Shown: piece by piece, positions 282 to 18,104 of the stretch
Layout of the letters: every line of letters begins with the position of its first letter
Position numbering within the stretch: the first letter of the stretch is position 1
Assembly (NCBI RefSeq): GCF_016406325.1
Contig: NZ_CP066370.1
Span: forward strand, 310,001 to 374,000
DNA: 64,000 nt
Origin: Shewanella putrefaciens
GTDB lineage: Bacteria > Pseudomonadota > Gammaproteobacteria > Enterobacterales > Shewanellaceae
Direction: 5' to 3'
Position numbers and translations under genes: made by a program
Notes under the pieces: generated by a model
What the model was told of the DNA's origin: nothing
Database searches by the model: none
The model's input: the letters and a program-made list of their open reading frames with translations, nothing else

Positions 282-312
282 GGTGATGTCCTTATGTGGT
301 TTTTATATGTCG

Positions 313-1572
313 TTATTGGGCCCAGCGTTTAAAAATCAGCGAGGTATTAATACCGCCAAAGGCGAAATTATTACTCATGACATAATCTGTGTCGATTTGG
401 CGCAGTTTGTTACGGATATAGTCCAAATCGGCGCATTGTGGGTCGATACTTTCAAGATTGAGTGTCGGCGCAAACCAGCCCGCATTCATCATCTCAATAC
501 TCACCCAAGCCTCTAACGCGCCGCATGCGCCTAAGGTGTGGCCCGTGTAGCTTTTAAGGGATGAAATCGGCATACCCGCACCAAATACTGCGTGGGTCGC
601 GTGGCTTTCGGCGATGTCACCGCGATCCGTTGCCGTGCCGTGGGCGTTCACATAACCTATGGCGCTAGGCTCAAGCTGCGCATCTTTGAGGGCTAATCTG
701 ATAGCGATTTCCATGGTCTGCGCGTTTGGTTGGGTGACGTGTTGGCCATCTGAATTCGTGCCAAAACCGACTAACTCAGCGTAAATCTTGGCACCGCGCG
801 CCTTGGCGTGTTCGAGCTCTTCGAGTACCAGCGTACAAGCACCTTCGCCAATCACTAGGCCATCACGGCTCGCATCGAAGGGGCGTGGCGTGAGTTCGGG
901 AGTGCTGTTTTTAGTGCTGGTGGCAAATAAGGTATCGAACACGACAGCCTCTGTGGGGCAGAGTTCTTCACCGCCGCCCGCCAACATTAAGGTTTGATGA
1001 CCGTATTTGATGGCTTCATAGGCGTAACCTATGCCTTGGCTCCCCGAGGTACAGGCGCTGCTAGTGGTGTGAATTCGGCCCTTTAAGCCGAAAAATACCC
1101 CCACATTCACCGCTGTGGTGTGTGCCATCATGCGGATATAACTTGTGGCGGTAACGCCCGACATATCACCGGTTTTCAACATATCGCCAAAGGCGATGAT
1201 GGCATCGGTACTGCCAGTGGACGAGCCATAGGCGATACCCATTTCACCCGAGGACACGATAGGATCGTCTAACAATCCCGCATCGATTAATGCAAGCTCG
1301 CTGGCGCGGGTCGCCATGATAGAAACCCGACCCATAGAACGAATTTTCTTGCGCGAATAATGGCTTGGCACTTCAAAGTCGCTAATGGGCGCGGCTAAGC
1401 GGGTATTGAGGCCATCGTATTTATCCCATTCGCCCATAGTGACAACACAGTTTTTCTGCGCCTTAAGGCTCGCTGCTATCGCCTCCCAATCATGGCCCAG
1501 GGCGGTAATGCCGCCAATGCCAGTGACAACCACTCGTTTCCCTAAGCGGGTTTGATTTGTCGGCTCGCTCAT
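313..1572 (-). CDS. apeR: Beta-ketoacyl-ACP synthase of the aryl polyene pathway (ApeR-like)
   Basis: A 419-residue FabF/FabB-type condensing enzyme with the complete Cys-His-His triad: C174 in SSACTSG, H311 in NAHGTAT and H345 in YTGHTLGACG, with K340 nearby. In characterised aryl polyene systems ApeR is the second active ketosynthase, working beside the ApeO/ApeC pair in chain initiation or extension. The ATG abuts the TAA of the upstream ketoreductase gene (TAAATG), so translation is probably coupled. It is the last recognisable biosynthetic gene of the operon. The family is certain. Assignment as ApeR rests on its place after the DH and KR genes, which matches the apeO-P-Q-R order. Confidence 0.9.
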   Translation of the reverse strand: MSEPTNQTRLGKRVVVTGIGGITALGHDWEAIAASLKAQKNCVVTMGEWDKYDGLNTRLAAPISDFEVPSHYSRKKIRSMGRVSIMATRASELALIDAGLLDDPIVSSGEMGIAYGSSTGSTDAIIAFGDMLKTGDMSGVTATSYIRMMAHTTAVNVGVFFGLKGRIHTTSSACTSGSQGIGYAYEAIKYGHQTLMLAGGGEELCPTEAVVFDTLFATSTKNSTPELTPRPFDASRDGLVIGEGACTLVLEELEHAKARGAKIYAELVGFGTNSDGQHVTQPNAQTMEIAIRLALKDAQLEPSAIGYVNAHGTATDRGDIAESHATHAVFGAGMPISSLKSYTGHTLGACGALEAWVSIEMMNAGWFAPTLNLESIDPQCADLDYIRNKLRQIDTDYVMSNNFAFGGINTSLIFKRWAQ

Positions 1573-2298
1573 TTAGATCATGCCTCCATTGACCGATATC
1601 ACTTGGCGAGTGATATAGGCGGCATCGTCAGACATTAAAAAGGCGGCTAAGGCGGCGATTTCACTGGGTTTACCCATGCGGCGCATCGGCACTAATTGCT
1701 CGACCATATCCTTAGGAATATCGGCCACCATGTCGGTTTCAATCAAGCCGGGAGCGATACAGTTGACGGTGATTTTGCGTTTTGCCAGTTCTAATGACAA
1801 TGCCTTAGTCGCGCCGATAATACCCGCTTTTGAGGCGCTGTAATTCACTTAGCCACGGTTGCCCGCAATCCCAGAAACAGAGGCTAAGGTAATGATACGC
1901 CCGCCCTTGCGGCCCTGTACCATAGGCATCACACAGGGGTGGATGACATTATAAAAGCCGTCTAAGTTAGTGTGGATGACGCTGTCCCACTCGCTTTCTG
2001 TCATAGCAGGAAAGGCGGTGTCGCGGTTGATACCAGCATTGAGGATCACGCCATAATAGGCACCATTGGCCTCGATGTCGGCTTCAATGGCGGCTCTGAC
2101 GGTTGCGCGGTCGGCGACATCAAATTTCAGCAGGCTCGCATTCACTCCAAGCGCGCGAACTTCTGCGGCGGTGGCATCGGCAGCCGTTTGGTTACTGTGG
2201 TAATGCAGGGCGATATCGAAACCCGCCACGGCGAGTTTTAGGGCGATGGCTTTACCAATGCCTCGGCTCGAACCGGTAACTAATACTCTGTTATTCAT
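1573..2298 (-). pseudogene. apeQ: 3-ketoacyl-ACP reductase (FabG/ApeQ-like) interrupted by an in-frame TAA
   Basis: A short-chain dehydrogenase/reductase of 241 sense codons broken by TAA at codon 150 (bases 1849-1851). Codons 1-149 carry the NADPH-binding TGSSRGIG (8-15), NAG (87-89) and the catalytic Ser in LASVSG (about S140). After the stop the same frame continues with VNYSASKAG, which holds catalytic Tyr153 and Lys157, and runs to a normal C-terminus (VNGGMI). FabG proteins usually have Gln at the broken position (GNxGQxNY), so a single CAA-to-TAA change explains the lesion. The start at 2298 has GGAG six bases upstream. The protein would reduce the beta-keto group in each polyene elongation cycle. 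A sequencing error, or restart at the GTG directly after the TAA, cannot be excluded. Confidence 0.88.
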
Positions 2299-2410
2299 CT
2301 GTTTTCTCCACCCCATTTTATCGTTATGTGTCGGTATGGGATTTCATGTATTTATGGTAAAAAGGTCGCTTGTTAAGGCGCTTTAAGGCTTTTTTATCTA
2401 CATCATTGCT

Positions 2411-2944
2411 TTAGTGCCCAAGGCTTCTATTTGCCGCGTCTTGATTGCCTGCAAGGTAGGCTTGTGTGTCCTGAGGTTGGAACACATTCACATTGGCTTG
2501 GGCCACTAAGCTCTTTTCTAGGTTAGAGCCGGCTTCGGGCAGCAGATAAATTTGGCAATCGAATACCGCTAATCCCGATTCCTCTTGATAGAGGCGGCTG
2601 ACTTGGGTGCGATAGGTGCGCCCGAGCTCATATTGCTTGGCATACAAGGTTAATTTGCGCGATCCCAATAGAAAACCCACGCGGATTTTATCATTGCGAA
2701 GCTTTGCCTCAACCCCAGCAAGGGCGGCAATACTTTGGGCCATATATTCGATACCCACATAATTGGGTACGGCTCGATGTTTGTCATCGAAATAGGGGCT
2801 CTTGGCCGTGATAGTGGCTTCGGTCTCTAGGTTATCGCGCCGATAGCCAATGATTTTATCGAGCAAAATCATCGGTGCCCTATGGGGAATAAAATCGGCA
2901 ATATTCTGTTCGGCAAAGGGTTTGTTGATCTTAAGTAACTGCAT
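2411..2944 (-). CDS. apeP: 3-hydroxyacyl-ACP dehydratase, hotdog fold (ApeP-like)
   Basis: A 177-residue FabA/FabZ-type hotdog protein. FIPHRAPMILLDKI (18-31) matches the FabZ N-terminal motif. HRAVPNYVGIEYMAQSIAA (56-74) aligns with the FabZ active-site helix, giving likely catalytic H56 and E67. In aryl polyene synthesis two dehydratases, ApeI and ApeP, remove water after each ketoreduction, giving the all-conjugated chain. It starts five bases after the ApeO-like stop. A 112-base gap follows before the ketoreductase start, the largest gap inside the operon, in which no gene is visible. The family call is firm. The ApeP label comes from motif and gene order. Confidence 0.85.
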   Translation of the reverse strand: MQLLKINKPFAEQNIADFIPHRAPMILLDKIIGYRRDNLETEATITAKSPYFDDKHRAVPNYVGIEYMAQSIAALAGVEAKLRNDKIRVGFLLGSRKLTLYAKQYELGRTYRTQVSRLYQEESGLAVFDCQIYLLPEAGSNLEKSLVAQANVNVFQPQDTQAYLAGNQDAANRSLGH

Positions 2945-2948
2945 GGTA

Positions 2949-4148
2949 CTAGGCCTCGTTACGGCAGAAAATCAGGCTGGCATTACTGCCGCCAAAGGCG
3001 AAGGAATTGCTCATCACATAATTAAGCGCGCCCTTAGCGGCGACTTGATGGCGCTCGACCAATGCAATGGGCGGATCCTGTGGATCGACTTGTCCGTCCC
3101 ATTGATGGGGCGGCAGGGCTTGGCGGTGATTATGTGCTGAAAGTAATAAATAACAGAAGGCGGCTTCAATGGCGCCAGCGGCACCTAAGGTATGGCCGAC
3201 TAAGGGCTTGGTCGAGCTACAAGGAGGCGTGTTCACGCCAAACACTTCAACCACGGCGCGGCTTTCCATCGCATCATTTTTAGGCGTGGCTGTACCGTGC
3301 AAGTTAATGTAACCAATGTCTTTTGCTGCAATGTGTGCATCTTGCAATGCCGCGTGCATGGCAGTGATGGCGCCTGCGCCTTCGGGGTGTGGCGCCGACA
3401 TATGGTGCGCATCGCTCGACTCGCCAATACCCGCTAGCATGACCTCTGACTCGCCCAAAGTGAGGGTGAATAACGCCGCGCCTTCGCCGATATTGATGCC
3501 ATCACGGTTGATACTAAAAGGATTGCAGTGGCCTTTCGAGACAGATTCTAAGGCGTGAAAACCATTGACTGTGAGTTGGCATAAACTGTCGACACCGCCG
3601 ACAATCACCATATCGCAGAGGTTAGCCTGTAATAGGCGTTTAGCGCTGGCAAACACTTTGGCGCTGGATGAGCAGGCGGTTGAAATTGTGTAGCAGGGAC
3701 CATCGAGCTCAAAATATTGGCGTAAAAAGTCGCTGGTGCTGCCGAGTTCTTGCTGGAAATAGTGGTAATCCGCCGGAAAGTATCCGTGTTGATTGCGGTA
3801 GCTCAGCGCGGCTTCACCTTTTGAAATCCCTGACGTGCTCGTGCCTAGCACTACACCAATACGGGCATGACCAAAATCCCGTTTCGCTTGTTCAACTGTG
3901 GTCGCAATTTGCAGTGCGGCGCACAGCAGTAATTGGTTGTTACGGCAATCGAACTGAATGAGTTTTTCGGGAATGGTTGGTAGCGCTGCCGTCACGGGGG
4001 CAACTAAGGTTGGGTGCTCGAACAGGAGAGTGTCACTGCGCAGCATCGCACTGGTATCACCGGCGATCAGGCGGTCTAAAACCTGCTGGGGATCTTGCCC
4101 TAGCGGGGTACACAATCCAATCTGTGTAATAGCTACTCTGTTCATCAT
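2949..4148 (-). CDS. apeO: Beta-ketoacyl-ACP synthase, elongating ketosynthase (ApeO-like)
   Basis: About 400 residues with a full KS catalytic set: C159 in TISTACSSS, H284 in INLHGTATP and H319 in PLVGHTLGAAG. In APE systems this KS pairs with the chain-length-factor-like ApeC (here 17022-17765) and extends the aryl-primed chain with malonyl-ACP units. The start is uncertain: ATGs lie at 4166, 4148 and 4145, none with a strong Shine-Dalgarno. 4148 is chosen because homology to KS proteins begins at MNRVAITQIG. It sits between a lipoprotein gene and a dehydratase gene in the same operon. Confidence 0.88.
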   Translation of the reverse strand: MMNRVAITQIGLCTPLGQDPQQVLDRLIAGDTSAMLRSDTLLFEHPTLVAPVTAALPTIPEKLIQFDCRNNQLLLCAALQIATTVEQAKRDFGHARIGVVLGTSTSGISKGEAALSYRNQHGYFPADYHYFQQELGSTSDFLRQYFELDGPCYTISTACSSSAKVFASAKRLLQANLCDMVIVGGVDSLCQLTVNGFHALESVSKGHCNPFSINRDGINIGEGAALFTLTLGESEVMLAGIGESSDAHHMSAPHPEGAGAITAMHAALQDAHIAAKDIGYINLHGTATPKNDAMESRAVVEVFGVNTPPCSSTKPLVGHTLGAAGAIEAAFCYLLLSAHNHRQALPPHQWDGQVDPQDPPIALVERHQVAAKGALNYVMSNSFAFGGSNASLIFCRNEA

Positions 4149-4194
4149 TGTGTGTCTTTTTACCATGGCACAGTTAAGTGCGGATGCTAACAGA

Positions 4195-4959
4195 TTAAAT
4201 AGGTTCGATTTCTAGCTCAAATTTAGCTTGTGGCATAGTTAAGCTGATGTGGGCTTGCCAAAGAGCATCGCCGATATTTTGTTGATAACGGATTTGCACC
4301 ACATGGGTTTGCTGGCCGCTTTTACTGATCAAGGTATCTTGGCTATAGATCTGGCGACAAGGGATTGTATTCACTCGGGTGCCTACAAGTGCATCGCCCT
4401 GATTTCCCCCAACCGTATCGCAAAGGCCTGTGACTAAATGACCACCTTCTAAATGGGCGCGAATACTCTGCTCAGGCCAATAGATCAGTTGCATCATCGC
4501 CATAAAATACTCAGCTTTAAAATTGTCCCCTAGCAGCACGCTTTGTTCACTGCTGAGTGTATTACCATCATAAACTAAGGTAAACAAAGCCTGTCCGAGT
4601 GGCGCTAAGCCAACGAGCGTCATGCGCTCATTCTCTAACTCTAATTGAGTGAGCAGTTCGTGGGACTTATCACCCACTTTAATGCTGACCTTTTGGCTAA
4701 AGGATTGGGGCGAAGTTAGCTTAACTTTGCTGTCGGTTTGCGGGCTGCTAATGTCGACGGGTTTGGCCGTCGGCTTAGTCAGAGGCTTATCGGCTGCGGG
4801 GGCAAAATCATGGGGCAGTGGCGCCAAGCAATAACGCATGTCTTTAGCGAGGCCGACACAGGTTTGCCTGAACAGCAGTTCGCTACATCCAGTCAGCCCT
4901 AGACTGATGATCAGTAGCGCGGGGAACACTCGCCATTTCGCGTTAAAGTTGAGCGACAT
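4195..4959 (-). CDS. Outer-membrane lipoprotein of the APE cluster (DUF3261-like, ApeN position)
   Basis: A 254-residue protein with a lipobox, LTGC, at residues 22-25 (lipidated C25). The +2 residue is Ser, which by the usual rule sends the lipoprotein to the outer membrane. A Pro/Lys/Thr-rich linker at roughly 45-75 precedes a beta-rich domain ending in FELEIEPI. It resembles the DUF3261 lipoproteins found in aryl polyene clusters, where a role in moving or anchoring the pigment in the outer membrane is supposed but not shown. The ATG at 4959 was chosen over one at 4992 because the latter overlaps the upstream coding end and adds a charged stretch before the signal. It starts four bases after the flavoprotein stop. 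Confidence 0.78.
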   Translation of the reverse strand: MSLNFNAKWRVFPALLIISLGLTGCSELLFRQTCVGLAKDMRYCLAPLPHDFAPAADKPLTKPTAKPVDISSPQTDSKVKLTSPQSFSQKVSIKVGDKSHELLTQLELENERMTLVGLAPLGQALFTLVYDGNTLSSEQSVLLGDNFKAEYFMAMMQLIYWPEQSIRAHLEGGHLVTGLCDTVGGNQGDALVGTRVNTIPCRQIYSQDTLISKSGQQTHVVQIRYQQNIGDALWQAHISLTMPQAKFELEIEPI

Positions 4960-4963
4960 GCGG

Positions 4964-6253
4964 TTACGCCTCTGCAAATTCAGGAATGGCAACTTGGTTT
5001 TGGCACAATTCGACCACCATATTCAGGCGGCGCTCCGAGTCTTTAACGAAGGGATTATTGAGGTCCCAAGCGTAGCCCGCCAGAATCGAGCAAATCATTT
5101 GCTTGATGCGTGGATTCGGTTCTTCATAGAAGATCACATCCTGAAAGCGGCCATCATACCAAGCTTGCACATAGGTGCGGAAGGTATTCACCCCCTGCAT
5201 TAAAGGCGCTGAGTAATCGGCTTGCCAGTCAACCGTTTCACCATTGAGTTGTTTAGTCACACATTTTGCTGCCATCGATGCCGATTGCATGGCGATAGTG
5301 ACGCCGGAGGAAAATACCGGATCAAGGAACTCGCCGGCATTACCCAGTAGGGCGAACTTGTCGGTCGCAAGCCGTGACACATTGGCGGAATAGCCCTTGA
5401 GTGTGGCGCATTCTTGCACCACCTTAGCGTTTGCCAGTAGGGCTTTTAGTCCTGGTTCTTCATTGACTATGTTCATCAATTGTTGCTCAAGCGAACCTTG
5501 TAAACGCGCAAGTAATTGCGGTTCGGCAACCACGCCGAGTGAGCAACGGCCATTGCTAAAGGGAATGAGCCAATACCAAATGTCTTTATGCTCTGGGTGG
5601 ACGCTGATTAAAATCTTATTACGATCGAAACTGGGATCGCTGATGTTATCTTCCACATGGGTAAAGATGGCGCTGCGCGGTGGCAGACAAGAAGGGCTTT
5701 CTAAGTCGAGCAAGCGGGGTAACACACGGCCAAAACCACTGGCATCAAGCACATATTGGGCGCTGATTTGATAAAGTTCGCCCTGTTCATTGCGCACCGT
5801 TAAGCGTGGGTTCTCGGTTAAATCTATCGCCTCGACCGTTTCGCCGTAGCGGATGTCGACCCCTTGGCTTTGGGCGGTATCGGCTAACAGTTTATCAAAA
5901 CTGGCGCGCTGCACTTGGAATGTGGTGCCCGGCCCAGGGGTAAATTTATCGGTAAAGTCGAAGGTAGTGTAAGTGCCATTGCGACGAAAGGCGGCGCCAT
6001 TTTTATACTGGAATCCAGCGGCATTGAGTGCGTCTAACATGCCGGCTTCTTCGATAAACTGCATGCAGCAGGGCAGTAAACTTTCGCCGATGGAAAAACG
6101 GGGGAAATGTTGTTTTTCTAACACCAGCACGCGTTTACCTTGTTGGTGTAGCAAGCTGGCGGCGATGGCGCCTGAAGGTCCTGCGCCGATAATAGCCACA
6201 TCGACGGCAAGTGAATTTGGCATAGCCGATAAATTGTGAGCGGGTGTAGGCAT
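4964..6253 (-). CDS. FAD-dependent oxidoreductase of the flavin halogenase/monooxygenase superfamily
   Basis: A 429-residue flavoprotein. The Rossmann motif GAGPSG is at 23-28, followed by the LEK...FPRFSIGESLLP stretch (45-61) typical of tryptophan-halogenase-like and geranylgeranyl-reductase-like enzymes. A WYWLIP motif at 226-231 fits the W-x-W-x-I-P signature of flavin-dependent halogenases. K84 in YKNGAAF lies where the catalytic lysine of phenolic halogenases is expected, which is my alignment by eye. DASGFGRVLPR (170-180) is the second FAD contact. It lies between the exporter and lipoprotein genes of the pigment operon, so the likely substrate is the aryl head group or the polyene. 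Hydroxylation or reduction instead of halogenation is possible. Confidence 0.82.
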   Translation of the reverse strand: MPTPAHNLSAMPNSLAVDVAIIGAGPSGAIAASLLHQQGKRVLVLEKQHFPRFSIGESLLPCCMQFIEEAGMLDALNAAGFQYKNGAAFRRNGTYTTFDFTDKFTPGPGTTFQVQRASFDKLLADTAQSQGVDIRYGETVEAIDLTENPRLTVRNEQGELYQISAQYVLDASGFGRVLPRLLDLESPSCLPPRSAIFTHVEDNISDPSFDRNKILISVHPEHKDIWYWLIPFSNGRCSLGVVAEPQLLARLQGSLEQQLMNIVNEEPGLKALLANAKVVQECATLKGYSANVSRLATDKFALLGNAGEFLDPVFSSGVTIAMQSASMAAKCVTKQLNGETVDWQADYSAPLMQGVNTFRTYVQAWYDGRFQDVIFYEEPNPRIKQMICSILAGYAWDLNNPFVKDSERRLNMVVELCQNQVAIPEFAEA

Positions 6254-6276
6254 GTAAAGTACGTTCCTTGTCGTGA

Positions 6277-8706
6277 TCAGGACTTTTTAGTCGTTAAAAT
6301 CAGTGGCGAAAGTAAGAAGGTAAAACCTATACCTAGCGACAGGGTTAAACCAAAATAATGAATCGCTTGGGTCTGGCTAAAGGCGAGTAAACCAAAGGCT
6401 AATAGGGTCGAGCAGGCGGACATAAATACCGCCATCATCACTGCCTTGCCGTGCTGTTGAGCAGAGGCAAAGAACAAGCTGTAGTCTATCCCAATCCCGA
6501 AAACTAAAATGAGCGCGAGTGCATGGAACAGACTCAGTGGCGAGCCTGTTAAGCCTAAGGTTGCAAGCGTTAGCAAGGCCGCAAGGGCTGGAACGGCAAC
6601 GACAACCGCGGCTTTTTTAATGCCAAAATTCAGGCTAAACAACAAGAGTGCGATACCCAGTGCGAGCGCTAACAGCTTTAGGGTTAACAGTCGATAATGC
6701 CCCATAACGGCGGAGATATCCGCGACTTTATCGATAAGTTGTACGCTTTCATCATTGGCAAAGCGCGCCTTGAGCGCGTCGATCTGTTTAATGCCGCCAA
6801 GCAAGACGATTGCGCCATGATCCGTGCCATGCTCAGCATCATAAGCGGTGGCCTTGTCATTCGGCGCAAGCCACAGTGGCGCGAGTTGCCTGCCTGCCTC
6901 TAGCGTAAAGAAATCTGCTGGCGTGATGTAATCTGTTTTCGCGGCCAAATAGGCGGCTTGTAGCTCTGGCTTTAAGTTCTCATCCAACCCAAGGCTTGTG
7001 AGCACTTGCTCTAACTGAGTTTGATAGATATCACCCTGTAAGCGATAAGCCGTGTCTTGCCTTTGATGGCTGGGAAGATATCGGCTGAGGCTGACGTAGT
7101 TGCCTAACTCTTGGTTCGCAATAGCGGCATCGAGCTGTGGCGACACTCGCTCAAGCTGTTGCAGCAGTGCTTCTTCACTCGCGGCGCGTACCAGTAAGAA
7201 TTGATTATCTGTGCCGCCGCTGAGTAGCTGCCTGAGCTTATTTTCAGGTTCAGTCACGCTCGCGGGGCTTTGCTGCAAATGGCGAATATCGTCATCGACG
7301 GTTAACTTGGTTACACCAACCAGACACCACACCACTATCACTAAAGCAAATAGGCCCATGCCTAAAGGCGTGGTCAATCTGTTGGATAACTGAGTGAGGT
7401 TGGCAAGGTACTTCCCCGCTAACGCTAATGGGCGGGAGCCCGATGGCAAACGACTTCCCGCTAACAGTGGGTAGGCGAGAATGAGGGTGAGATAAGCCCC
7501 GAGCAGCCCCGCGGCGCAGAAAATAGCCACTTGCTGCATCCCTGGAAACGGCGCTAAACCTATGCCCACATAAGCTAAGGCACTGGTGATAAAGGCAAGC
7601 GTCACAGTGGGGAAGATATACGCGACCGTCGCCTGAGCGCTCCGTTCGGTATCGCTTAAGCGTTCGCAGTAAAAATGAAAGCTGTAGTCGATGGCAATGC
7701 CAATCAAGCTAGTACCAAACACTAAGGTGAGTATATGCAGCTCGCCAAACACGCTTAAGGTCAACGTCACTGCCAGCAACAGCCCGCTGGAAATGGTAAC
7801 GATTGCCAACAGTAGCGGCATTACAGAGCGAAACGCCAGCCAGACTAGGGCTATGACCCCAAGTAAGGATGCAAGACCGAGGATCGAGATTTCACTCTTA
7901 GCCGTTTGGGTCGCCGCAATCGCGTGAAACAGGGCGCCAGCCTTAAGCAGGGTAATATCGGGATAGCTTTGTTTAACCGCATCCAATCCTAGGGTTAATG
8001 CCGTCATCTGCGCCAATTGCGCATTGGGATTAAAAGCACTTTCTTGGCCTTTTGCCATAACAACCGCAGCGACATTATCGCCTTGATTAGCAAGGAGAAT
8101 ACTTTGGCTGGCTCTGACTTTTGAACTCGGCGCGAGGGCGAGTAAATTGGCGGGGAATAACAGCAGCGGATCTTGGGCAAGCAAGTTGCTATTGGCGTAA
8201 CTAAAGGCGTTGTAAAGCTGTGCGGTGGCCGCTTCAATCAGATTTCCAATGTCTTTGGTTGCTAACGCCTCAGCTTGTGGCGCTGTCAGTAATTTAAATC
8301 TGTGGGGGAAATAGTATTGCCCCAATGCTTCACCGAGCTGCATATCGGCGCTGCGAATCTCTGTGAGTGCAGCATTTTTTCCAGTAGCAACGAGGTCAGT
8401 TTCAAGCTTTTGCATCAACAGCTGTGCCGCAGCGATTGCCGTGGTTTCATCCTTGGCGACGAGCGCAATATAGACTTGATCGGCGAGCGTGGCTTCTACT
8501 TGGTTAAGGGCGCGCTCTGTGAGTTTGTCCTGTTGTAAATGCGGCAGCATGGCGAGAATATCGCTCTGTACCCGTGCGCCGTTTTGCCAAAGTTGCAACG
8601 TCCATAGACTGGCAGACAGCATCACTAGCAACCAAATGGCGAGGCGCCATTTAGGGGATGATTGTATTAGCGCTTGATTGGCGCGCACGGCGAAGTTGGA
8701 GGCCAT
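6277..8706 (-). CDS. MMPL/RND-family exporter (ApeM position)
   Basis: An 809-residue inner-membrane protein with the two-fold RND layout: one N-terminal membrane helix (about 20-40), a large periplasmic domain (to about 250), a five-helix bundle with the sterol-sensing-like pattern GIAIDYSFHFYCERLSD, a second periplasmic loop, and a second bundle with GIGIDYSLFFASAQ. Exporters of this family move lipids and lipid-linked products. In APE clusters the homologue is thought to carry the acyl-linked pigment from the inner membrane to the periplasm, working with the LolA-like protein encoded just upstream. The ATG is two bases after the stop of that gene. Confidence 0.88.
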   Translation of the reverse strand: MASNFAVRANQALIQSSPKWRLAIWLLVMLSASLWTLQLWQNGARVQSDILAMLPHLQQDKLTERALNQVEATLADQVYIALVAKDETTAIAAAQLLMQKLETDLVATGKNAALTEIRSADMQLGEALGQYYFPHRFKLLTAPQAEALATKDIGNLIEAATAQLYNAFSYANSNLLAQDPLLLFPANLLALAPSSKVRASQSILLANQGDNVAAVVMAKGQESAFNPNAQLAQMTALTLGLDAVKQSYPDITLLKAGALFHAIAATQTAKSEISILGLASLLGVIALVWLAFRSVMPLLLAIVTISSGLLLAVTLTLSVFGELHILTLVFGTSLIGIAIDYSFHFYCERLSDTERSAQATVAYIFPTVTLAFITSALAYVGIGLAPFPGMQQVAIFCAAGLLGAYLTLILAYPLLAGSRLPSGSRPLALAGKYLANLTQLSNRLTTPLGMGLFALVIVVWCLVGVTKLTVDDDIRHLQQSPASVTEPENKLRQLLSGGTDNQFLLVRAASEEALLQQLERVSPQLDAAIANQELGNYVSLSRYLPSHQRQDTAYRLQGDIYQTQLEQVLTSLGLDENLKPELQAAYLAAKTDYITPADFFTLEAGRQLAPLWLAPNDKATAYDAEHGTDHGAIVLLGGIKQIDALKARFANDESVQLIDKVADISAVMGHYRLLTLKLLALALGIALLLFSLNFGIKKAAVVVAVPALAALLTLATLGLTGSPLSLFHALALILVFGIGIDYSLFFASAQQHGKAVMMAVFMSACSTLLAFGLLAFSQTQAIHYFGLTLSLGIGFTFLLSPLILTTKKS

Positions 8707-8708
8707 AG

Positions 8709-9461
8709 CTAAGGTATGCTCGCCTCGAGCGCCAACGCATACTGCGTCAATTCGGTTTCGCTGAGTTTACCTTGGGAAAGCGCACTAAAGTCGATGCGGG
8801 TCATATCCTGTGGTGTCACATTCGGCGCGGCGCTCAGCAGCACTAAGGATTGCAATACATCGCTCCCCTCTAACACCATATTGGCGATGGCTTTTTTCAT
8901 TAAGGGATCTTTGGGCGTTAGGCCTAATTGCCATTGGCCGTCTGGGCTTAACCTGTCTGCGATGAGGAAGTGCAGTTCGAAGTTCTCACTTAAACCGGAA
9001 ATATCACCGCCGAGCATAGCGCGCACTAGGCTGGGCAATAAATCGCCCATAGCGGCGGCGCTCGTCGATGCATCAGCCTTGCTGACTTGTACTCGACCTT
9101 GACTATCGCGCTGAATAAGCTGCTTATCTTTTAAAATCAGCAGGGATTCGAAGGGCTTTATCTGTTGCCATATCAGCCCTTGGGTCTGATCGAAGATAAA
9201 CTGGCCTTGGCTGATTAACGGCTTTTTGAGCACCTTTAACTGCCGAGATTGCACAAAGTTGCCACGAACCGTTTCGCCCAAGTTAAGCTTTTGGCTCAGG
9301 GCCACAAGCTGCGCTTTATCCGCAGTTTGGGTGAATAGTTGCTGGTAATTGTTGGCAGAAACCGCCGTTGTCGATGTGTCAGCCTTGCACTGCGCCGATA
9401 TCAATACGCTGCAAAAACACAGGATAAGCATAAGCTTGATGTGTGTTAGCGCGGCGTTCAT
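8709..9461 (-). CDS. LolA-like periplasmic carrier (ApeL position)
   Basis: A 250-residue protein with a signal peptide (hydrophobic core about 8-23, ending near SAQCKA). It has the outer-membrane-lipoprotein-carrier pattern of LolA relatives: RGNFVQSRQLKVLKKPLISQGQFIFDQTQGLIWQ (about 62-95), then the SLL...I..DS stretch. LolA chaperones lipoproteins across the periplasm. The version in APE clusters is presumed to carry the polyene lipid or its lipoprotein partner. The ATG overlaps the thioesterase stop by four bases (ATGA), and the MMPL exporter follows two bases later, which supports a shared transport role. Confidence 0.85.
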   Translation of the reverse strand: MNAALTHIKLMLILCFCSVLISAQCKADTSTTAVSANNYQQLFTQTADKAQLVALSQKLNLGETVRGNFVQSRQLKVLKKPLISQGQFIFDQTQGLIWQQIKPFESLLILKDKQLIQRDSQGRVQVSKADASTSAAAMGDLLPSLVRAMLGGDISGLSENFELHFLIADRLSPDGQWQLGLTPKDPLMKKAIANMVLEGSDVLQSLVLLSAAPNVTPQDMTRIDFSALSQGKLSETELTQYALALEASIP

Positions 9462-9892
9462 TGGTTTTCAACCTTAGCGAGCAGGGTGGCTATTTTGTTA
9501 CGGAACACCTCTGGGGTGACAAAGCACAATTCTTGGGTGCTCATATCGACCGCTGCCTGAATGGTATAACCCTTAGTGATGCGCGCACCTGTTTCAACGT
9601 CGCGAATTTGATAATTGATTTTTAAGCGGTTTTCCCACTCGACTAACTCTGCGCGGACTGTGATTTTTTGCTCGAAGGTGCTGGCTTTGACGTACTTAAT
9701 CTGCAAATCGATAATAGGCCACGCATAGTTAGATGCTTGCATTTGGCGATAGTTATAGCCCAGCTCATCGAGCAGTTTGCAGCGAGCAATCTCGAAATAA
9801 CGCAGGTAATTGCCATGCCAAGTGATCCCCATGGAATCCACATCGTGGAAGGGGATTTGCATTTCCATATCGATAGTGAGCAATGATTTCAT
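9458..9892 (-). CDS. apeK: Acyl-ACP/CoA thioesterase, 4-hydroxybenzoyl-CoA thioesterase type (ApeK-like)
   Basis: A 144-residue single-domain hotdog thioesterase of the YbgC/4HBT family. FHDVDSMGITWHGNYLRYFEIAR (15-37) contains the catalytic Asp (D19) at the place used by 4HBT enzymes. In the APE pathway such an enzyme could release stalled or finished chains from the ACP. The start at 9892 forms an ATGA overlap with the lyase stop. An upstream ATG at 9907 would lie inside the lyase gene and lacks homology. The family is firm, but its precise substrate cannot be read from sequence. Confidence 0.85.
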   Translation of the reverse strand: MKSLLTIDMEMQIPFHDVDSMGITWHGNYLRYFEIARCKLLDELGYNYRQMQASNYAWPIIDLQIKYVKASTFEQKITVRAELVEWENRLKINYQIRDVETGARITKGYTIQAAVDMSTQELCFVTPEVFRNKIATLLAKVENQ

Positions 9893-11463
9893 CGGCACAC
9901 TTCCCATTCACCCGCTTGGATTTTCGCTATGGTTTGGCGCAGCACGGCTTCAAGCGGCCTATCTTCAATTAAGGTCTCAAAATCACCGCGCACTTGGGCG
10001 AGGGTTTTCGCCAATGATGGCGTGAGCGAGGCTTCGTCCAGCTCATTTTGGGCGATACGCAGGCCAATACCTTGGGTCATGGCAAGTAATGCAGCCGCTG
10101 CGACTTGTTCGGTCAATTGCAGTACACGCATACAGTCGCGGGCGGCAATGGTGCCCATGCTCACCTTGTCTTGGTTGTGGCATTCGGTCGAGCGCGAGAA
10201 TACGCTGGCGGGCATAGTGTGCTTGAGTGCTTCAGCTGTCCACGCCGATACCCCAATTTGCACCGCTTTAAAGCCATGATTAATCGCGCGGCGCGGGCCG
10301 GTTGAGCCGGATAAGTTAGCGGGTAAGCCATTATTAAACTTAGGGTCCATTACCAGTGCCATTTGGCGATCGATAAGATCGGCTAAGTTAGCCACAGTAT
10401 TCTTAAGTGAATCCATCGCAAAGGCGATATGGCCGCCGTAAAAATGGCCACCGTGGAGAATATGCTCGCCTTCGCCGTCGACAATCGGGTTGTCGTTGGC
10501 GCTGTTGACTTCGGTTTCGATAAACTGACGCATAAACGGCAGCGCATCCTGCAACACGCCGATAATGTGCGGCGCGCAGCGGATGGAATATCTGTCCTGC
10601 AGCCTGTCAGAATTACGTGGATGTTCGTGGTGATTTAAATCTTCCCGTATCCAAGTGGCGATTTGGTTTTGCCCCGGATGCGGTTTAGCGGCAAATAAGA
10701 TTTCATCAAAATGGTTCGAGTTGCCTTTTAGCGTTAACGAAGCCATAGCGGTAATGCGGCTACTTAAGCGGGCAAGATATTGGGCGCGATCGAAGGCTAA
10801 ACAGGCCAAGGCCGTCATCACAGCCGTGCCGTTCATCAGGGCTAAGCCTTCTTTTGGACGCAGGACATGCGGGATAATGTTGAGCTTAGCGTACACAGCT
10901 TGAGTCGCTTGGCGCTCACCTTGGTAAATCACTTCGCGCTCACCGACTAACACGGCGGCTAAATACGACAGCGGCGTTAAATCACCACTGGCACCGACCG
11001 AACCTTCCTCTGGGATTACAGGGACTATGTTGAGATTGAGCAAAGTTTCGATGCGCTTTAATAGCTCATAGGTCACACCAGATTTGCCAATGGCTAAGGA
11101 GTTTAAACGGCAAGCCATCACAGCGCGGGCCTGCATTATGCTTAAGGTCTCGCCTAAACCGCAGCCGTGGAAGCGGGTTAAATGCAGTGGCAATTCGTGG
11201 ACCAGATCTAAGCTCACATTGACTGTGCAAGAGTCGCCATAACCTGTGGTGACGCCATAAACCACGCCTTCTTCGTGCAGCAGGCTATCGATAAAGCGCG
11301 CACCTTTTTGGATATATTCTTGATAATCCGCATCATCACAGAGCTTGACTGGTGCGCCCTTGGCGACGGCAACCACTTGTTCTAAGGTTAGAAATTGACG
11401 GCCGAACTCAACAGTCTTTAAGTCTGATTGATTCTTTGAGTCGGCGGCTTGGGTGTGGCTCAT
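9889..11463 (-). CDS. Aromatic amino acid ammonia-lyase (HAL/PAL/TAL family)
   Basis: A 524-residue lyase with the Ala-Ser-Gly triad (158-160, SVGASGDLTP) that cyclises to the MIO cofactor. It has the tyrosine loop VYGVTTGYG (68-76) and the SANDNP and GG(H/N)FxG stretches of the family. The substrate-selectivity pair after LTR is Phe98-His99, differing from the Ser-His of histidine lyases and His-Leu of classic tyrosine lyases. Inside an aryl polyene operon the expected product is coumarate from tyrosine, or cinnamate from phenylalanine, as the aryl starter. It would normally be annotated hutH, but no other hut gene is here. The ATG overlaps the upstream stop by four bases. Confidence 0.9.
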   Translation of the reverse strand: MSHTQAADSKNQSDLKTVEFGRQFLTLEQVVAVAKGAPVKLCDDADYQEYIQKGARFIDSLLHEEGVVYGVTTGYGDSCTVNVSLDLVHELPLHLTRFHGCGLGETLSIMQARAVMACRLNSLAIGKSGVTYELLKRIETLLNLNIVPVIPEEGSVGASGDLTPLSYLAAVLVGEREVIYQGERQATQAVYAKLNIIPHVLRPKEGLALMNGTAVMTALACLAFDRAQYLARLSSRITAMASLTLKGNSNHFDEILFAAKPHPGQNQIATWIREDLNHHEHPRNSDRLQDRYSIRCAPHIIGVLQDALPFMRQFIETEVNSANDNPIVDGEGEHILHGGHFYGGHIAFAMDSLKNTVANLADLIDRQMALVMDPKFNNGLPANLSGSTGPRRAINHGFKAVQIGVSAWTAEALKHTMPASVFSRSTECHNQDKVSMGTIAARDCMRVLQLTEQVAAAALLAMTQGIGLRIAQNELDEASLTPSLAKTLAQVRGDFETLIEDRPLEAVLRQTIAKIQAGEWEVCR

Positions 11464-13349
11464 GAATGACTAGTCCTGTCTGTCTTATGATCCTGCTCTG
11501 GGACCTGCGATGATGCTGATTCTGTTGTTACAGCATCGGCTTGTACTGAATTGGCTGATGCGCGTTCTAACTCGCTGTCTTTACGCCAAAAATCGAAGAA
11601 GTTAAACCATTGCAAAGGCTCGCGTCTGGCAAAGTATTCTAAACGTTCGCTGTAGCGATTTACTGCCTGCTGTAATCTGTCCATTCTGCCCGCCCTTGGG
11701 CCTTTAAGTGTTTCGGCGAAGTGCTCTAAATGCACCCGATAACGGCCCTGTTCCCGTAGGCAAAACATTAAAAATACAGGGCAATCGAGTAAACCTGCCA
11801 AAATAAACGGCCCTTGGGGAAACGCTGCGTCTTGCCCCATAAACGGCGCGTAAATGACGCGACCTTGGGTATTCGATGAGGTTCTATCGCCCGCGATCAC
11901 CACCAGTTCACCTGCTTCTATCTTTTGCTGCAACAGCATAGATGTCGCGGGGTTAAGCTCGGTCACTTGAATAAGATTGAGCGTGCTATCAGGGTTTAAC
12001 TGTTTGAGTACCTTATTGAAATTTTCTGCATGGCTCGTTAACACCATGACATTCACTTTGACTTTGCGCTGGTGGATCGAAATGGCGCGGCAGAGCTCTA
12101 AATTACCAAGGTGAGACACCAATAGTACGGCGCCTTTACCGCTTTCGAGTTGGTCGGCCAGCACTTGGCGATCGGGGAAATCCACTTGGCTCAATTGGAT
12201 GCGATCGCACCAGGCATCGATTCTATCGAGTGCGGCATTTCCAAAGGCTAAAAAGTGATTCAGGCTATCGCGCCAGCCTACAGGCTGATTCAGCTTAGGA
12301 TGTTGCGGCTCAAGCGTTTGCACGCGGCGCAGGAAATCTAACGAGGCTTCACGGGTGACTTTGCCCGTGAGGAAGAAATAGCAAATCACAGGATACATAA
12401 TGGCGCGGCACAACCAATGGCCGCCAATACGATAGCTCTCGGCTAACAGTTTGATGCCCCAGTAACTGCCGCGCTCCTTCATGCCCGACCAATGGGTGGC
12501 TGAAGTTGATGATGTTGCTGAAGTCGATTGTGTTGCTGACGAGCAATGGGAGTTTTGCGCGGCTTGTTGCTGCGATTTACGCTGTGATTTACGCTTCAAT
12601 AGCCAAGGCAGGCGTTTGAGCATGCCGAAAAACAACTTGGTATGCAGTTTAGTGATGCGCACATTGTCGGCTACACCTTGGAAGTGACTGACGCCGCCTT
12701 CGGGATAAATCACCTTAGTCGGCTGGAATAAAATCTCCACCCCTTGCCAGTAGAGTTTGACGAGGATTTCAATATCAAAATCCATTCGCTCCGTTAATGC
12801 CTGCTGACACAATAACCGTTCGGTGGCGGCCAGCGGATAAACGCGAAAGCCACACATAGAATCTTGAATATCAAAGCTTAAAGTTTCGACCCACACCCAA
12901 AAATGGGTGATATAACGGCCATAAAGCCTGCCATTAGGCACGGATTCATCGTACTCGGGTTTGCCTGAAATCAGCGCATCGGGTTTAGCCTGCGCCCTTG
13001 CTACCATAGCAGGAATATCGGCTAGATTGTGTTGACCATCGGCATCGACCTGCAGTGCATGACTAAAGCCATCGCGGTAGGCTCGGCGTAGGCCCGTCAT
13101 CACAGCAGCGCCTTTACCACGGTTGTAAGGATGCAGCAGCAAAGTCACCCAAGGATAGGTTTGGGCTAAGGATTGCAGTAGATAACGGGTTTCGTCATTG
13201 CTGCCATCATCAATCAAATAACAGGGCAAATTAAACTGGGCGAGTTCGGCCAAGGTCTGGGCAATTGCGGCACTGTGATTGTAATTGGGGATCACTAGGG
13301 CGAGCTTGATGGGCGCGGACTCAACTAAGTCGCTGGGAGGTGTTAGCAC
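11460..13349 (-). CDS. Fused family-2 glycosyltransferase and LpxL-like acyltransferase (ApeJ position)
   Basis: A 629-residue two-domain protein. Residues 14-250 are a GT2 domain (LALVIPNYNH, IDDGSND at 46-52, and the DxD-type DADGQH at 102-107). A low-complexity linker with STSAT repeats (about 260-288) leads to a lauroyl-acyltransferase-like domain with the HX4E motif H413-E418 (SHLGNLELCR) and a C-terminal arginine-rich FARREPLQWFNFFDFW end. It probably adds a sugar and an acyl chain to the aryl head or to a membrane anchor of the pigment. The start is a GTG overlapping the dehydratase gene by seven bases. The C-terminal 35 residues are low-complexity and polar. Confidence 0.85.
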   Translation of the reverse strand: MLTPPSDLVESAPIKLALVIPNYNHSAAIAQTLAELAQFNLPCYLIDDGSNDETRYLLQSLAQTYPWVTLLLHPYNRGKGAAVMTGLRRAYRDGFSHALQVDADGQHNLADIPAMVARAQAKPDALISGKPEYDESVPNGRLYGRYITHFWVWVETLSFDIQDSMCGFRVYPLAATERLLCQQALTERMDFDIEILVKLYWQGVEILFQPTKVIYPEGGVSHFQGVADNVRITKLHTKLFFGMLKRLPWLLKRKSQRKSQQQAAQNSHCSSATQSTSATSSTSATHWSGMKERGSYWGIKLLAESYRIGGHWLCRAIMYPVICYFFLTGKVTREASLDFLRRVQTLEPQHPKLNQPVGWRDSLNHFLAFGNAALDRIDAWCDRIQLSQVDFPDRQVLADQLESGKGAVLLVSHLGNLELCRAISIHQRKVKVNVMVLTSHAENFNKVLKQLNPDSTLNLIQVTELNPATSMLLQQKIEAGELVVIAGDRTSSNTQGRVIYAPFMGQDAAFPQGPFILAGLLDCPVFLMFCLREQGRYRVHLEHFAETLKGPRAGRMDRLQQAVNRYSERLEYFARREPLQWFNFFDFWRKDSELERASANSVQADAVTTESASSQVPEQDHKTDRTSHS

Positions 13350-13756
13350 TGGCTCGCCCCGTTGCTGTTGGCATTAGTGGTATCGGCAGGCTGATTGACC
13401 AATGGGGTGGTCTCAAAGGCGATACGGCCTGATGCATAGCGGTTTTCACCATCGCTATAGGCGAAGGTAAGTTTTCCCTTAGCCGCATTGTTGCTAATGC
13501 TTAAGGTGACTTCTTGCCCTGGCAGTATGAGTTGCTGAAACTTAAGCACTTCTAAGTTGGCTACGGCTTCGCAATAGCCGAAATATTGGCAGCCTAAACG
13601 CACCGCCCAATCTAATTGCGTCACGCCTGGCAGTACGGCTTGCTCGGGAAAATGTCCCTTAAAAGATTCAAGGTCGGCCGCCACTAATAGGCGTAATTCA
13701 ATGTTATCAATGCCGATATTGGAATGCAGGATCGGCGGTAAACTCGATTTAATCAT
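13343..13756 (-). CDS. apeI: 3-hydroxyacyl-ACP dehydratase, hotdog fold (ApeI-like)
   Basis: A 137-residue FabZ/FabA-type protein. SFKGHFPEQAVLPGVTQLDWAV (31-52) is the dehydratase signature with catalytic H35. The usual Glu of the active-site helix appears as Asp49, as in the ApeI subgroup rather than FabZ. It is the second dehydratase of the pathway and probably works with ApeP (2411-2944). The ATG at 13756 overlaps the end of the ligase gene by eight bases; a TTG six bases further up is less likely. The C-terminal 25 residues are a polar tail rich in Asn and Thr. Confidence 0.82.
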   Translation of the reverse strand: MIKSSLPPILHSNIGIDNIELRLLVAADLESFKGHFPEQAVLPGVTQLDWAVRLGCQYFGYCEAVANLEVLKFQQLILPGQEVTLSISNNAAKGKLTFAYSDGENRYASGRIAFETTPLVNQPADTTNANSNGASQC

Positions 13757-15113
13757 GATCAAATAACTCGACTAACTGGGCAGTGACACGCTTACCCTGA
13801 GTGTTCAGCGGCAAAATATCGGGATAACGCCAGCGGCGTGGCAGGGTGACTCGCTCAAATTGCGTCAGTAAATGTGCTTTTAGGGCATTGTTAATGCTGA
13901 GTTTTCCCTGCTCTTGATGCACACTGCGTCCAAGTGCTGAGAGAGTTACCACCGCGCCCAGTTGGGATTTAAACTGCGGCAATACGACAAGTGCGGCTTG
14001 CTCAACATAGGCGTGGCTGCCTAACAGCGTTTCCATTTGTGCCAGTGATAGACGTTTTTCCTCTATCTTAACGATGCGATCGAGTCGGCCCTTGAGTCTA
14101 AACTGGCCATTTTCGGTTGGTTCGATTTTATCTTCGCAGCGCAACCATTCATCGTCGACCAAATAGGGTGATTTAAGTAGCAAAGCTCCGTCACTAGGGT
14201 CTTGATCTATCGATATTCTGTCAAACACTTGCCAAGGTTCATCGGCCTCATGCTGACGTCGATAGGCGATGCCGCCCGTTTCCGTGCTGCCAAATATTTC
14301 GATGGGCAAGTGACCATAGCATTGGCTGATCCCTTGAGCCGCAGCAAAACTTAAGGGCCCGCCAGAGCTAAACACTAAGCTAGGTGAGCGCAGTTGCCGC
14401 TCGTGCTCTAAGGCCTTAGGTAAACGCGATAACTGGGCTGGGCTGCTGATTAAACACAGGTTTGGCAGTAAGGCGGTGTAATAGCTTAAGGTTTCTGGGT
14501 ATTCAATCTGCTCGCTTAAAAACGGCCGACTGGCGGCGAGTGGCCACAAAATCTTGAATAACAGGCCATAGATATGCTGGTGGGAAACCGTTGAAACCAC
14601 ACTGCAATGGGGTAAATGTTCGGCAAAGGTATGTTCGAGCACTGAGACTTCAACGTCTAATTGCTGAAGTGTTTTACGGATCGCCTTAGGTTCGCCGCTG
14701 CTGCCGGAGGTAAAGAGCACAAGTTCGCCGATAGCCTCGCTTGCCGGCCAAGGTTTACTCGGCAGGCTCAGCTCTTTTCTCAGTAGAATAAAGGCCTGAC
14801 TTTCACACAATGGCTTGTCCGACAATATGCCTTCAAACTGGTGGGTTAACTCGCTCAGCGTGCCCGTTTGGGTGTTGGCTGGTAAGATAATTTCCTTGCC
14901 CGCTAACAGCGCCGCACATAAACCCACAGCAAACAGATCGCTGGTATCACTCGCGAGCAGCCATTTTTTCTCTGGCGCGGCCAGCAGTTGCTCATAAAAA
15001 TACGCCACCTGATTGGTAAATAATGCACCTGTGACTATGTCGTGGTGATTAAAGCTGATCAGTTGTTGGGCAAAGGGCCCTTGGATTAACCAGTTTTTGA
15101 GTAGCTGTGTCAT
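13749..15113 (-). CDS. apeH: AMP-forming aryl-ACP ligase (ApeH-like)
   Basis: A 454-residue member of the ANL adenylating superfamily. The P-loop TSGSSGEPK is at 135-143, the A5 motif IEIFGSTETGGIAYR lies near 265-280, the hinge GRLDRIVKIEEKRLS is in the C-terminal third, and the probable catalytic lysine sits in LPLNTQGKR. In APE synthesis ApeH activates the aryl acid (for example a hydroxybenzoic or coumaric acid) and loads it on the partner ACP. The start at 15113 forms an ATGA overlap with the membrane-protein gene. It is shorter than acyl-CoA synthetases (about 550 residues) but normal for this subgroup. Confidence 0.87.
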   Translation of the reverse strand: MTQLLKNWLIQGPFAQQLISFNHHDIVTGALFTNQVAYFYEQLLAAPEKKWLLASDTSDLFAVGLCAALLAGKEIILPANTQTGTLSELTHQFEGILSDKPLCESQAFILLRKELSLPSKPWPASEAIGELVLFTSGSSGEPKAIRKTLQQLDVEVSVLEHTFAEHLPHCSVVSTVSHQHIYGLLFKILWPLAASRPFLSEQIEYPETLSYYTALLPNLCLISSPAQLSRLPKALEHERQLRSPSLVFSSGGPLSFAAAQGISQCYGHLPIEIFGSTETGGIAYRRQHEADEPWQVFDRISIDQDPSDGALLLKSPYLVDDEWLRCEDKIEPTENGQFRLKGRLDRIVKIEEKRLSLAQMETLLGSHAYVEQAALVVLPQFKSQLGAVVTLSALGRSVHQEQGKLSINNALKAHLLTQFERVTLPRRWRYPDILPLNTQGKRVTAQLVELFDHD

Positions 15114-15658
15114 GTTTTCTTCAACCAAAAGCTGCGATATAACCACTCCCCACCGAGGAGCAGTCCCATGAGTACGTATGCAATCAAACCGTTATACAAG
15201 GTCCAGGTTGCTAAGCTAGTAAAGCCAGCGGTGTAAGCCGCCATAGTGCCATTGAAGATAAATAAGCCGCACCAAAGTAGCGTGACTTTCTTAAGATACC
15301 CAGTGGCTTCATCCGGTAAATCGGGTTCTTTCAAACGGGCTAAACGTTCGATCATGCTAGGGCCAGTGTGCAGTGAATAACTGAACAGCGCCAGCATAGT
15401 GAGATTTATCACTACTGGGTAATACAGCAGCCAGTCACTGCGCTTGGCAATATAACTGCCTGCCGTGAGCACAATCCCCACCAATAGTGGTAAAACTAAT
15501 GTCTTAACCCTTTGCTTTTGAAGCATTAGCCGCATTATCAGCAATAAACACAGCACGAGCGCTATGGTGCCAGCAGGCAAGTAACTGAGCCCTAAGTACA
15601 CGGCAACGGGGTAGGCCAGCAAAGTTAGGGCGGTTAAGACCTGTAGCAAGGCTCGCAT
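15110..15658 (-). CDS. Small inner-membrane protein of the APE cluster (COG4648-like, ApeG position)
   Basis: A 182-residue protein with about six hydrophobic helices (roughly 4-20, 25-45, 53-70, 78-96, 125-145, 155-172) and no signal peptide. It resembles the COG4648 family of predicted membrane proteins that accompany aryl polyene ligase and ACP genes. No catalytic motif is visible. Its start overlaps the ACP stop (TAATG) and its stop overlaps the ligase start, so it is tightly coupled to both. A role in holding the biosynthetic complex at the membrane is only a guess from context. Confidence 0.78.
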   Translation of the reverse strand: MRALLQVLTALTLLAYPVAVYLGLSYLPAGTIALVLCLLLIMRLMLQKQRVKTLVLPLLVGIVLTAGSYIAKRSDWLLYYPVVINLTMLALFSYSLHTGPSMIERLARLKEPDLPDEATGYLKKVTLLWCGLFIFNGTMAAYTAGFTSLATWTLYNGLIAYVLMGLLLGGEWLYRSFWLKKT

Positions 15659-15906
15659 TAGGTTCTCACTAAACCTTCGATAGCATTAATCACATCGTTG
15701 ATTGTGCGAACTGATTTAAATTCATCGGGTTGGATCTTTTTACCTGTCAGTTGCTGCAGCTTTATCACTAAGTCGACGGCATCAATACTGTCGAGATCGA
15801 GCTCTTCATACAGGTTGGCCTCAGGCGTAATCGCCTCGGCATCAATTTCGAATTCGTCCACTAAAATAGTGGTCAGCATAGCGAGGATTTGTTCACGATT
15901 TTGCAT
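15658..15906 (-). CDS. apeF: Acyl carrier protein (ApeF-like)
   Basis: An 82-residue acidic ACP. The phosphopantetheine site is S40 in DLDSIDAVDLV, and the three-helix ACP pattern is complete up to INAIEGL. One of two tandem ACPs in the operon. In characterised systems one carries the aryl starter and the other the growing chain or malonyl unit; which does which cannot be told from sequence. It starts ten bases after the other ACP gene, with GAGAGGA upstream of its ATG. Confidence 0.9.
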   Translation of the reverse strand: MQNREQILAMLTTILVDEFEIDAEAITPEANLYEELDLDSIDAVDLVIKLQQLTGKKIQPDEFKSVRTINDVINAIEGLVRT

Positions 15907-15915
15907 ATTCCTCTC

Positions 15916-16170
15916 CTATGGACGCTGTGATTCGATAAAGCGAGCTAAGCTGGCAACACTGTGGAAATGGGCCTTAGTGGCATCCGAATTGGCTTCGATT
16001 TTGACATCAAATTTTTTCTTGATGGCTAAGCCGAGCTCGAGGGCGTCGATAGAATCTAAGCCTAAACCTTCGCCAAATAGCGGCGCATCGGTTTCAATAT
16101 CATCAATGCTGACGTCTTCTAGATCGAGACAGTCGATGATTAACTGCTTTATTTCATTGTTTAAGTTCAT
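15916..16170 (-). CDS. apeE: Acyl carrier protein (ApeE-like)
   Basis: An 84-residue ACP with phosphopantetheine site S40 in GLDSIDALELG, preceded by a LFGEGLGL turn. Compared with the neighbouring ACP it is slightly more basic around helix III (KKKFDVKI). The start is taken at MNLNNEIKQL because ACP homology begins there. A start at 16206 would add 12 Asn/Ile-rich residues with no match to the family. The chosen ATG overlaps the end of the acyltransferase gene by 17 bases. Confidence 0.88.
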   Translation of the reverse strand: MNLNNEIKQLIIDCLDLEDVSIDDIETDAPLFGEGLGLDSIDALELGLAIKKKFDVKIEANSDATKAHFHSVASLARFIESQRP

Positions 16171-18089: not shown

Positions 18090-18104
18090 TGAGTGGGTTT
18101 AAGA

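What the first reader, a model, noticed from the sequence alone, without database searches (positions are those of the whole stretch)
1573..2298. Nonsense codon splits the pigment ketoreductase right before its catalytic YxxxK
Seen: the ApeQ-like frame is intact on both sides of one TAA at 1849-1851, where FabG proteins usually carry Gln (CAA). The stop lies between the catalytic Ser (about 140) and Tyr153/Lys157, so the first product would be dead. The rest of the 17-kb pathway looks intact, so this would be a recent, single-base loss of pigment. An alternative is restart at the GTG directly after the TAA, giving a split enzyme.
Basis: partly seen in the sequence, partly recalled or inferred. 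Interest (0 to 1): 0.72.

Follow-up and report, generated by a model that had tools for sequence, protein, structure and literature searches.

The report
Broken pigment reductase in a Shewanella
One Shewanella genome carries a stop codon in the middle of the reductase gene that builds a yellow membrane pigment, so the pigment is probably lost in this strain; this is an ordinary, probably recent gene-breaking mutation, unless the base is a sequencing error.

Summary
On the minus strand, 2298-1573 is a 241-codon ketoreductase frame (FabG2/ApeQ type) with one in-frame TAA at 1849-1851, codon 150. Of 117 Shewanella genomes with a match to this gene (129 searched), only this one has an in-frame stop. 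Relatives carry glutamine there: 80 of 80 named loci, 28 of 28 motif-readable other genomes. The break separates the NADPH-binding half with Ser140 from Tyr153/Lys157; codon 150 itself corresponds to Gln150, modelled as substrate-orienting in Acinetobacter ApeQ (PMC8041823). It is the only broken frame of 29 complete frames compared with the nearest relative. The gene shows almost no other decay, so the stop is young or a base-call error. Restart at the adjacent GTG has no ribosome-site signal, which weakens but does not exclude it. A published assay found FabG cannot replace ApeQ. Most likely this is a recent loss-of-function allele that abolishes aryl polyene pigment in this strain. No reads, second isolate or phenotype was available, so a lone base-call error cannot be excluded. 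An ordinary kind of event, low in novelty.

The parts
1573..2298 (-). interrupted ketoreductase gene (ApeQ/FabG2 type), 241-codon frame with one internal TAA
1849..1851 (-). in-frame TAA, codon 150; glutamine in relatives
1852..2298 (-). N-terminal piece, 149 aa: NADPH-binding half, Arg12, Asp93, Ser140, Arg148
   Evidence: residue roles from PMC8041823 passages
1573..1848 (-). C-terminal piece, 91 aa from GTG: Tyr153, Lys157, Arg174, Leu185, Thr188 (lid start)
   Evidence: residue roles from PMC8041823 passages
313..1572 (-). ketosynthase in the ApeR position; its ATG follows the reductase's natural terminator directly and has a strong ribosome site
2411..2944 (-). dehydratase in the ApeP position (weak FabZ match)
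2949..4166 (-). ketosynthase in the ApeO position
4195..4992 (-). DUF3261 protein
4964..6253 (-). FAD-dependent oxidoreductase/halogenase-like
6277..8706 (-). MMPL/RND exporter (ApeM-like)
8709..9461 (-). LolA-like carrier
9458..9907 (-). thioesterase (ApeK-like)
9889..11463 (-). aromatic amino acid ammonia-lyase (HAL/TAL superfamily)
11460..13349 (-). glycosyltransferase-acyltransferase fusion (ApeJ-like)
13343..13762 (-). ApeI-like dehydratase (PF22818)
13749..15146 (-). acyl-ACP synthetase/AMP ligase (ApeH-like)
15110..15658 (-). protein in the ApeG (COG4648) position; no Pfam match
15658..15906 (-). acyl carrier protein
15916..16170 (-). acyl carrier protein
16154..17107 (-). lysophospholipid acyltransferase-like (ApeD position); the mechanical ORF start is probably upstream of the real one
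17022..17765 (-). ketoacyl-synt_2 domain protein

Best explanation
A recent nonsense mutation in the aryl polyene ketoreductase gene (apeQ). Translation ends at codon 150 and releases a 149-aa NADPH-binding half without the catalytic Tyr153/Lys157, the ACP-contact Arg174 and the substrate lid. The beta-keto group added in each elongation round cannot be reduced, so no conjugated aryl polyene forms and the strain lacks the yellow membrane pigment, while the other pathway genes are still open. Shown: the stop, its uniqueness among the genomes searched, the open remainder of the pathway, the near-absence of further decay. Inferred: loss of enzyme, loss of pigment.
For: Stop present and unique: 1 of 117 gene-bearing Shewanella genomes (129 searched). 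Only broken frame of 29 complete frames against the nearest relative G002. The three-genome counts give 12 synonymous and 4 nonsynonymous changes before the stop, 5 and 0 after it; if neutral throughout, 43-52 nonsynonymous would be expected. Against eight relatives 6 synonymous, 1 nonsynonymous and the stop are private. Catalytic and ACP-contact residues lie beyond the stop. FabG could not replace ApeQ in an in vitro assay (PMC8041823, passages seen). The other reductases found in this genome at E <= 1e-15 are at most 45% identical. In E. coli most mutants in core ape genes are unpigmented (PMC8253772, passages seen; the apeQ result itself is in a figure not held).
Against: No reads and no second isolate of the species were available, so a wrong base call is possible. 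Phenotype unknown. Pigment production from the intact cluster in Shewanella was not seen in the listings (listings only, papers not opened). The lack of decay fits an error or residual function as well as recency. The branch counts assume that G002 and G029 show the ancestral state; the reductase tree of nine rows is poorly resolved (0 of 6 inner branches well supported).
Confidence: 0.68

Rival explanations
1. The TAA is a base-call or assembly error and the real gene is intact.
For: It is the only broken frame in the stretch compared, unique among the genus genomes searched, close to the glutamine codons of relatives, and the gene otherwise shows normal purifying selection. The surrounding motif GGCC is changed in 8 of 52 shared sites, toward the high end of the motifs tried.
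Against: The genome is one 4,386,330-base contig, completeness 100, and the 28 other complete frames compared have no stop and no break in coverage, so local base quality looks good. No clear motif-linked error: share of G002=G029 sites changed in the window is GGCC 8 of 52, GCGC 13 of 106, AGCT 9 of 58, CCGG 3 of 15, GATC 4 of 41, GCCG 5 of 68, TTGG 11 of 96, CAAG 7 of 66, TGGC 8 of 122; TGGCCA 1 of 4 is too few to judge.
Confidence: 0.22
2. The stop is read through at low level, giving reduced but useful reductase (regulatory or leaky in-frame stop).
For: In-frame stops with dN/dS below 1 have been reported as widespread in bacteria (PMC7918605, abstract seen). The post-stop part has 5 synonymous and 0 nonsynonymous changes in the three-genome count.
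Against: The same gene uses TAA as its natural terminator (1573-1575). The RNA after the stop folds no better than shuffles (z +0.86, 162 of 200 shuffles at least as stable). No Rfam match in 1-20000 at gathering scores. The stop is in no other genome searched, so selection after it cannot be separated from selection before it. A suppressor tRNA was not searched for.
Confidence: 0.07
3. Termination and restart at the adjacent GTG gives a two-piece enzyme that reassembles.
For: GTG follows the TAA directly, and the next junction of this operon is also a stop directly followed by a start (TAA-ATG). Weak ribosome sites are not rare here: 4 of 15 neighbouring start positions tried (KS 4166, dehydratase 13762, ACP 16170, recG 21281; some only mechanical calls) score -2.5 kcal/mol or weaker. 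Five of the 120 listed C-terminal fragment proteins begin exactly at this residue.
Against: Predicted anti-SD pairing at the GTG is -2.5 kcal/mol; 42% of 2000 random positions in 500-17000 do as well, against 1.5% for the native start and 0.4% for the next gene. The glutamine itself would be absent. The fragment lengths cluster at many start codons, not only this one, and their DNA could not be seen, so contig ends or errors explain them equally. A natural split SDR of this kind is not known to me (recalled, not searched).
Confidence: 0.03

Closest known systems
ApeQ, ketoreductase of aryl polyene clusters (A. baumannii ApeQ)
   Same: Ungapped 241-residue alignment of the intact relative to solved chains 7czc and 7caw (deposited as 3-oxoacyl-ACP reductase FabG; that either is the A. 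baumannii ApeQ entry is my inference). Ser140, Tyr153, Lys157, Arg148, Arg174, Leu185, Asp93 and Arg12 are all present in the two pieces. The gene order on either side fits O-P-Q-R.
   Different: Interrupted by TAA at codon 150. The cluster also has an ammonia-lyase and a FAD enzyme; no methyltransferase match (ApeB type) among the 17 other frames scanned.
Ordinary strain-level bacterial pseudogene by nonsense mutation
   Same: Single interrupted codon, intact relatives, open neighbours, little further decay.
   Different: Nothing, apart from the residue hit being one modelled in the active site.

Membership tests
ApeQ/FabG2 ketoreductase (as ancestry of the gene) | Matches the FabG2 family model over its length | tested here: met
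   N piece covers model 1-145, C piece 147-239 of TIGR01831; neither piece alone reaches the cut-off of 338.85 bits (260.5 and 171.1)
ApeQ/FabG2 ketoreductase (as ancestry of the gene) | Position in an aryl polyene cluster between DH and KS (O-P-Q-R order) | tested here: met
   roles of the E. coli genes partly from PMC8253772 passages; the full letter order and letters L and N are recalled
Functional ApeQ enzyme | Ser-Tyr-Lys catalytic set in one polypeptide | tested here: not met
   TAA at codon 150 lies between Ser140 and Tyr153
Nonsense pseudogene | In-frame stop absent from relatives | tested here: met
   1 of 117 gene-bearing genomes; 80 of 80 named loci have Gln
Nonsense pseudogene | No functional product | not testable with these tools
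   needs proteomics or pigment assay
Readthrough/recoded gene | Stop conserved in relatives or a recoding signal beside it | tested here: not met
   stop in none of the 116 other gene-bearing genomes; fold z +0.86

The most novel reading that the evidence does not exclude
Restart at the GTG right after the TAA yields two separately translated halves that assemble into a working split ketoreductase, so the pathway runs with a two-piece SDR enzyme lacking Gln150.
Probability: 0.02. Interest if true: 0.55.

Novelty: new member of a known kind. Interest (0 to 1): 0.14.

Why it matters
If real, it is a natural apeQ null allele in a genus where a matching gene is found in 117 of 129 genomes and has no in-frame stop in the other 116. 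That makes the strain a ready natural comparison for what aryl polyenes do in Shewanella, and a caution for anyone using it as a reference for pigment or oxidative-stress work. It also shows that a cluster call from genome mining does not mean the product is made.

Tried and rejected
Systematic sequencing error at a methylated motif: no clear excess at GGCC (8 of 52 changed; the other four-base motifs tried range from 7% to 20%). Other broken genes in the pathway: none seen; stops reported for the 16154-17107 frame in G002, G029 and G006 were read for G002 and G029 and lie in the upstream extension of the mechanical ORF (G006 not read); one stop each in G015 and G024 for the DUF3261 query was not followed up. 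Recoding signal: no unusual RNA fold, no Rfam match. Compensation by a paralogue: best other reductase 45% identical, and published FabG could not replace ApeQ. Relaxed selection on the N half: three of its four apparent replacements are shared with G006, and the fourth is not private either against eight relatives, where the single private replacement is at codon 24. A split form fixed in other genomes: protein searches (best 120 of 7632 and of 1511 listed) gave full-length relatives and scattered fragments whose DNA could not be read. Species name: relatives G002 and G029 have the contig lengths of S. oncorhynchi S-1 and S. hafniensis ATCC BAA-1207 records; that the window's genome is S. putrefaciens is my guess from size and kinship, not established by any search (one search listed papers, one search gave taxonomy passages only). 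A plasmid search gave one weak partial match. A search for printed pseudogenes of such clusters gave a listing of general papers only.

Full report
What is there. The window is bases 310,001-374,000 of a single-contig 4,386,330-base genome whose nearest relatives are Shewanella (same-genus genomes G002 and G029 have the contig lengths of S. oncorhynchi and S. hafniensis records). On the minus strand, 2298-1573 is a ketoreductase frame: 149 codons from ATG, TAA (1849-1851), a GTG-led stretch of 91 codons, and the natural terminator TAA. Both pieces match 3-ketoacyl-ACP reductase FabG2 (TIGR01831), the first over model positions 1-145, the second over 147-239.

Is the stop exceptional? In 30 loci (own plus 29 relatives), 29 carried the local motif: the window's codon is TAA and the other 28 are glutamine codons; one locus (L024, genome G001) lacks the motif in that form, but that genome has no stop either. 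In 80 named loci, the best 80 of 182 found, glutamine is present in 80 and no stop occurs. In the genus-wide search 129 genomes were searched, 117 have a match at E <= 1e-80, and exactly one, the window's, has an in-frame stop; the weakest of these matches (62-67% identity, G023, G136, G076) may not be true counterparts. Among 240 listed database proteins (capped lists) 221 could be read by motif, and all 221 have glutamine.

What the break does. The intact relative aligns without gaps, 241 to 241, to two solved chains, so numbering carries over. The window has Ser140, Tyr153, Lys157, Arg12, Asp93, Arg148, Arg174 and Leu185. In the A. baumannii ApeQ paper (PMC8041823; passages including part of the abstract seen) Tyr153/Lys157/Ser140 are the catalytic set, Gln150 with Tyr153 is modelled to orient the substrate, Arg148 and Arg174 matter for carrier-protein binding, and Leu185 meets the aryl group. 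The TAA therefore removes a modelled active-site residue and everything after it. The same paper reports that FabG could not substitute for ApeQ in vitro. The best other reductase in this genome is 45% identical.

Surroundings. The 18 minus-strand genes from 17765 to 313 have the content of an aryl polyene cluster (ketoacyl-synt_2 protein, acyltransferase, two ACPs, ApeG-position protein, ligase, ApeI-like dehydratase, glycosyltransferase-acyltransferase, ammonia-lyase, thioesterase, LolA-like, MMPL exporter, FAD enzyme, DUF3261, KS, DH, KR, KS). Apart from the reductase, each window frame is open and is matched in a single stretch by its counterparts in six relatives, mostly over its whole length (shorter at the N-terminus in some, for example LolA-like residues 32-250 in G002). 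Over G002's corresponding 60 kb, 52 mechanical frames of at least 100 aa were tested: 22 had no match in the window (most of them in a G002-only stretch beyond recG), one runs off the window edge, 28 are matched over at least 90% without a stop, and one, this gene, is broken.

How old? Changes where the window differs from G002 = G029: 12 synonymous and 4 nonsynonymous before the stop, three of the four shared with G006; 5 and 0 after it. With 17 synonymous changes a gene neutral all along would show 43-52 nonsynonymous; the data allow at most 9-21% of the branch to have been neutral. With eight relatives, codons private to the window are 6 synonymous, 1 nonsynonymous and the stop; by hand with the same ratios the bound is looser, about 0.3. 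The tree of the nine reductases is poorly resolved, so these branch counts are approximate. The stop is thus recent, or an error, or the gene keeps a function; a single genome cannot separate these.

Restart and readthrough. Predicted anti-Shine-Dalgarno pairing before the GTG is -2.5 kcal/mol, equalled by 42% of 2000 random positions, against -7.1 for the native start (1.5%) and -9.3 for the following ketosynthase (0.4%); but 4 of 15 neighbouring start positions score no better than -2.5, so this weakens restart without excluding it. The RNA after the stop folds slightly worse than shuffles (z +0.86). The gene's own terminator is also TAA, so general TAA suppression is unlikely. The tally shows many other start-codon lengths, so this is not evidence of a conserved split.

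Error or mutation? Local quality looks good (28 other frames without a stop) and there is no clear motif-linked excess of changes: GGCC 8 of 52, toward the high end of the motifs tried, beside GCGC 13 of 106, AGCT 9 of 58, CCGG 3 of 15, GATC 4 of 41, GCCG 5 of 68, TTGG 11 of 96, CAAG 7 of 66 and TGGC 8 of 122. Still, one wrong base call cannot be excluded without reads or a second isolate.

Verdict. It is a clear but ordinary strain-level event.

Noticed in passing
window 9889-11463: An ammonia-lyase of the HAL/TAL superfamily sits inside the aryl polyene cluster, between the glycosyltransferase-acyltransferase and thioesterase genes, and is among the most conserved proteins of the cluster (99.6% to G002); it may supply an aromatic acid starter. 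Scores stay below the curated cut-offs of the hutH, FlxA and BagA/FevW models.
   Followed up: partly
window 21331-25536: Unaligned to G002 beyond the recG gene; G002 holds about 25.7 kb at the same place (23270-48981 of the joined stretch), so this is a variable site. Its frames were listed but not studied.
   Followed up: partly
window 2411-2944: The dehydratase in the ApeP position has more replacements than silent changes in the three-genome count (5 synonymous, 7 nonsynonymous), unlike the genes beside it.
   Followed up: no
proteins P0126, P0145, P0155, P0168, P0229: 91-aa C-terminal reductase fragments from short contigs, beginning exactly at the residue after codon 150; contig ends, errors or recurrent breaks cannot be told apart without DNA.
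   Followed up: partly
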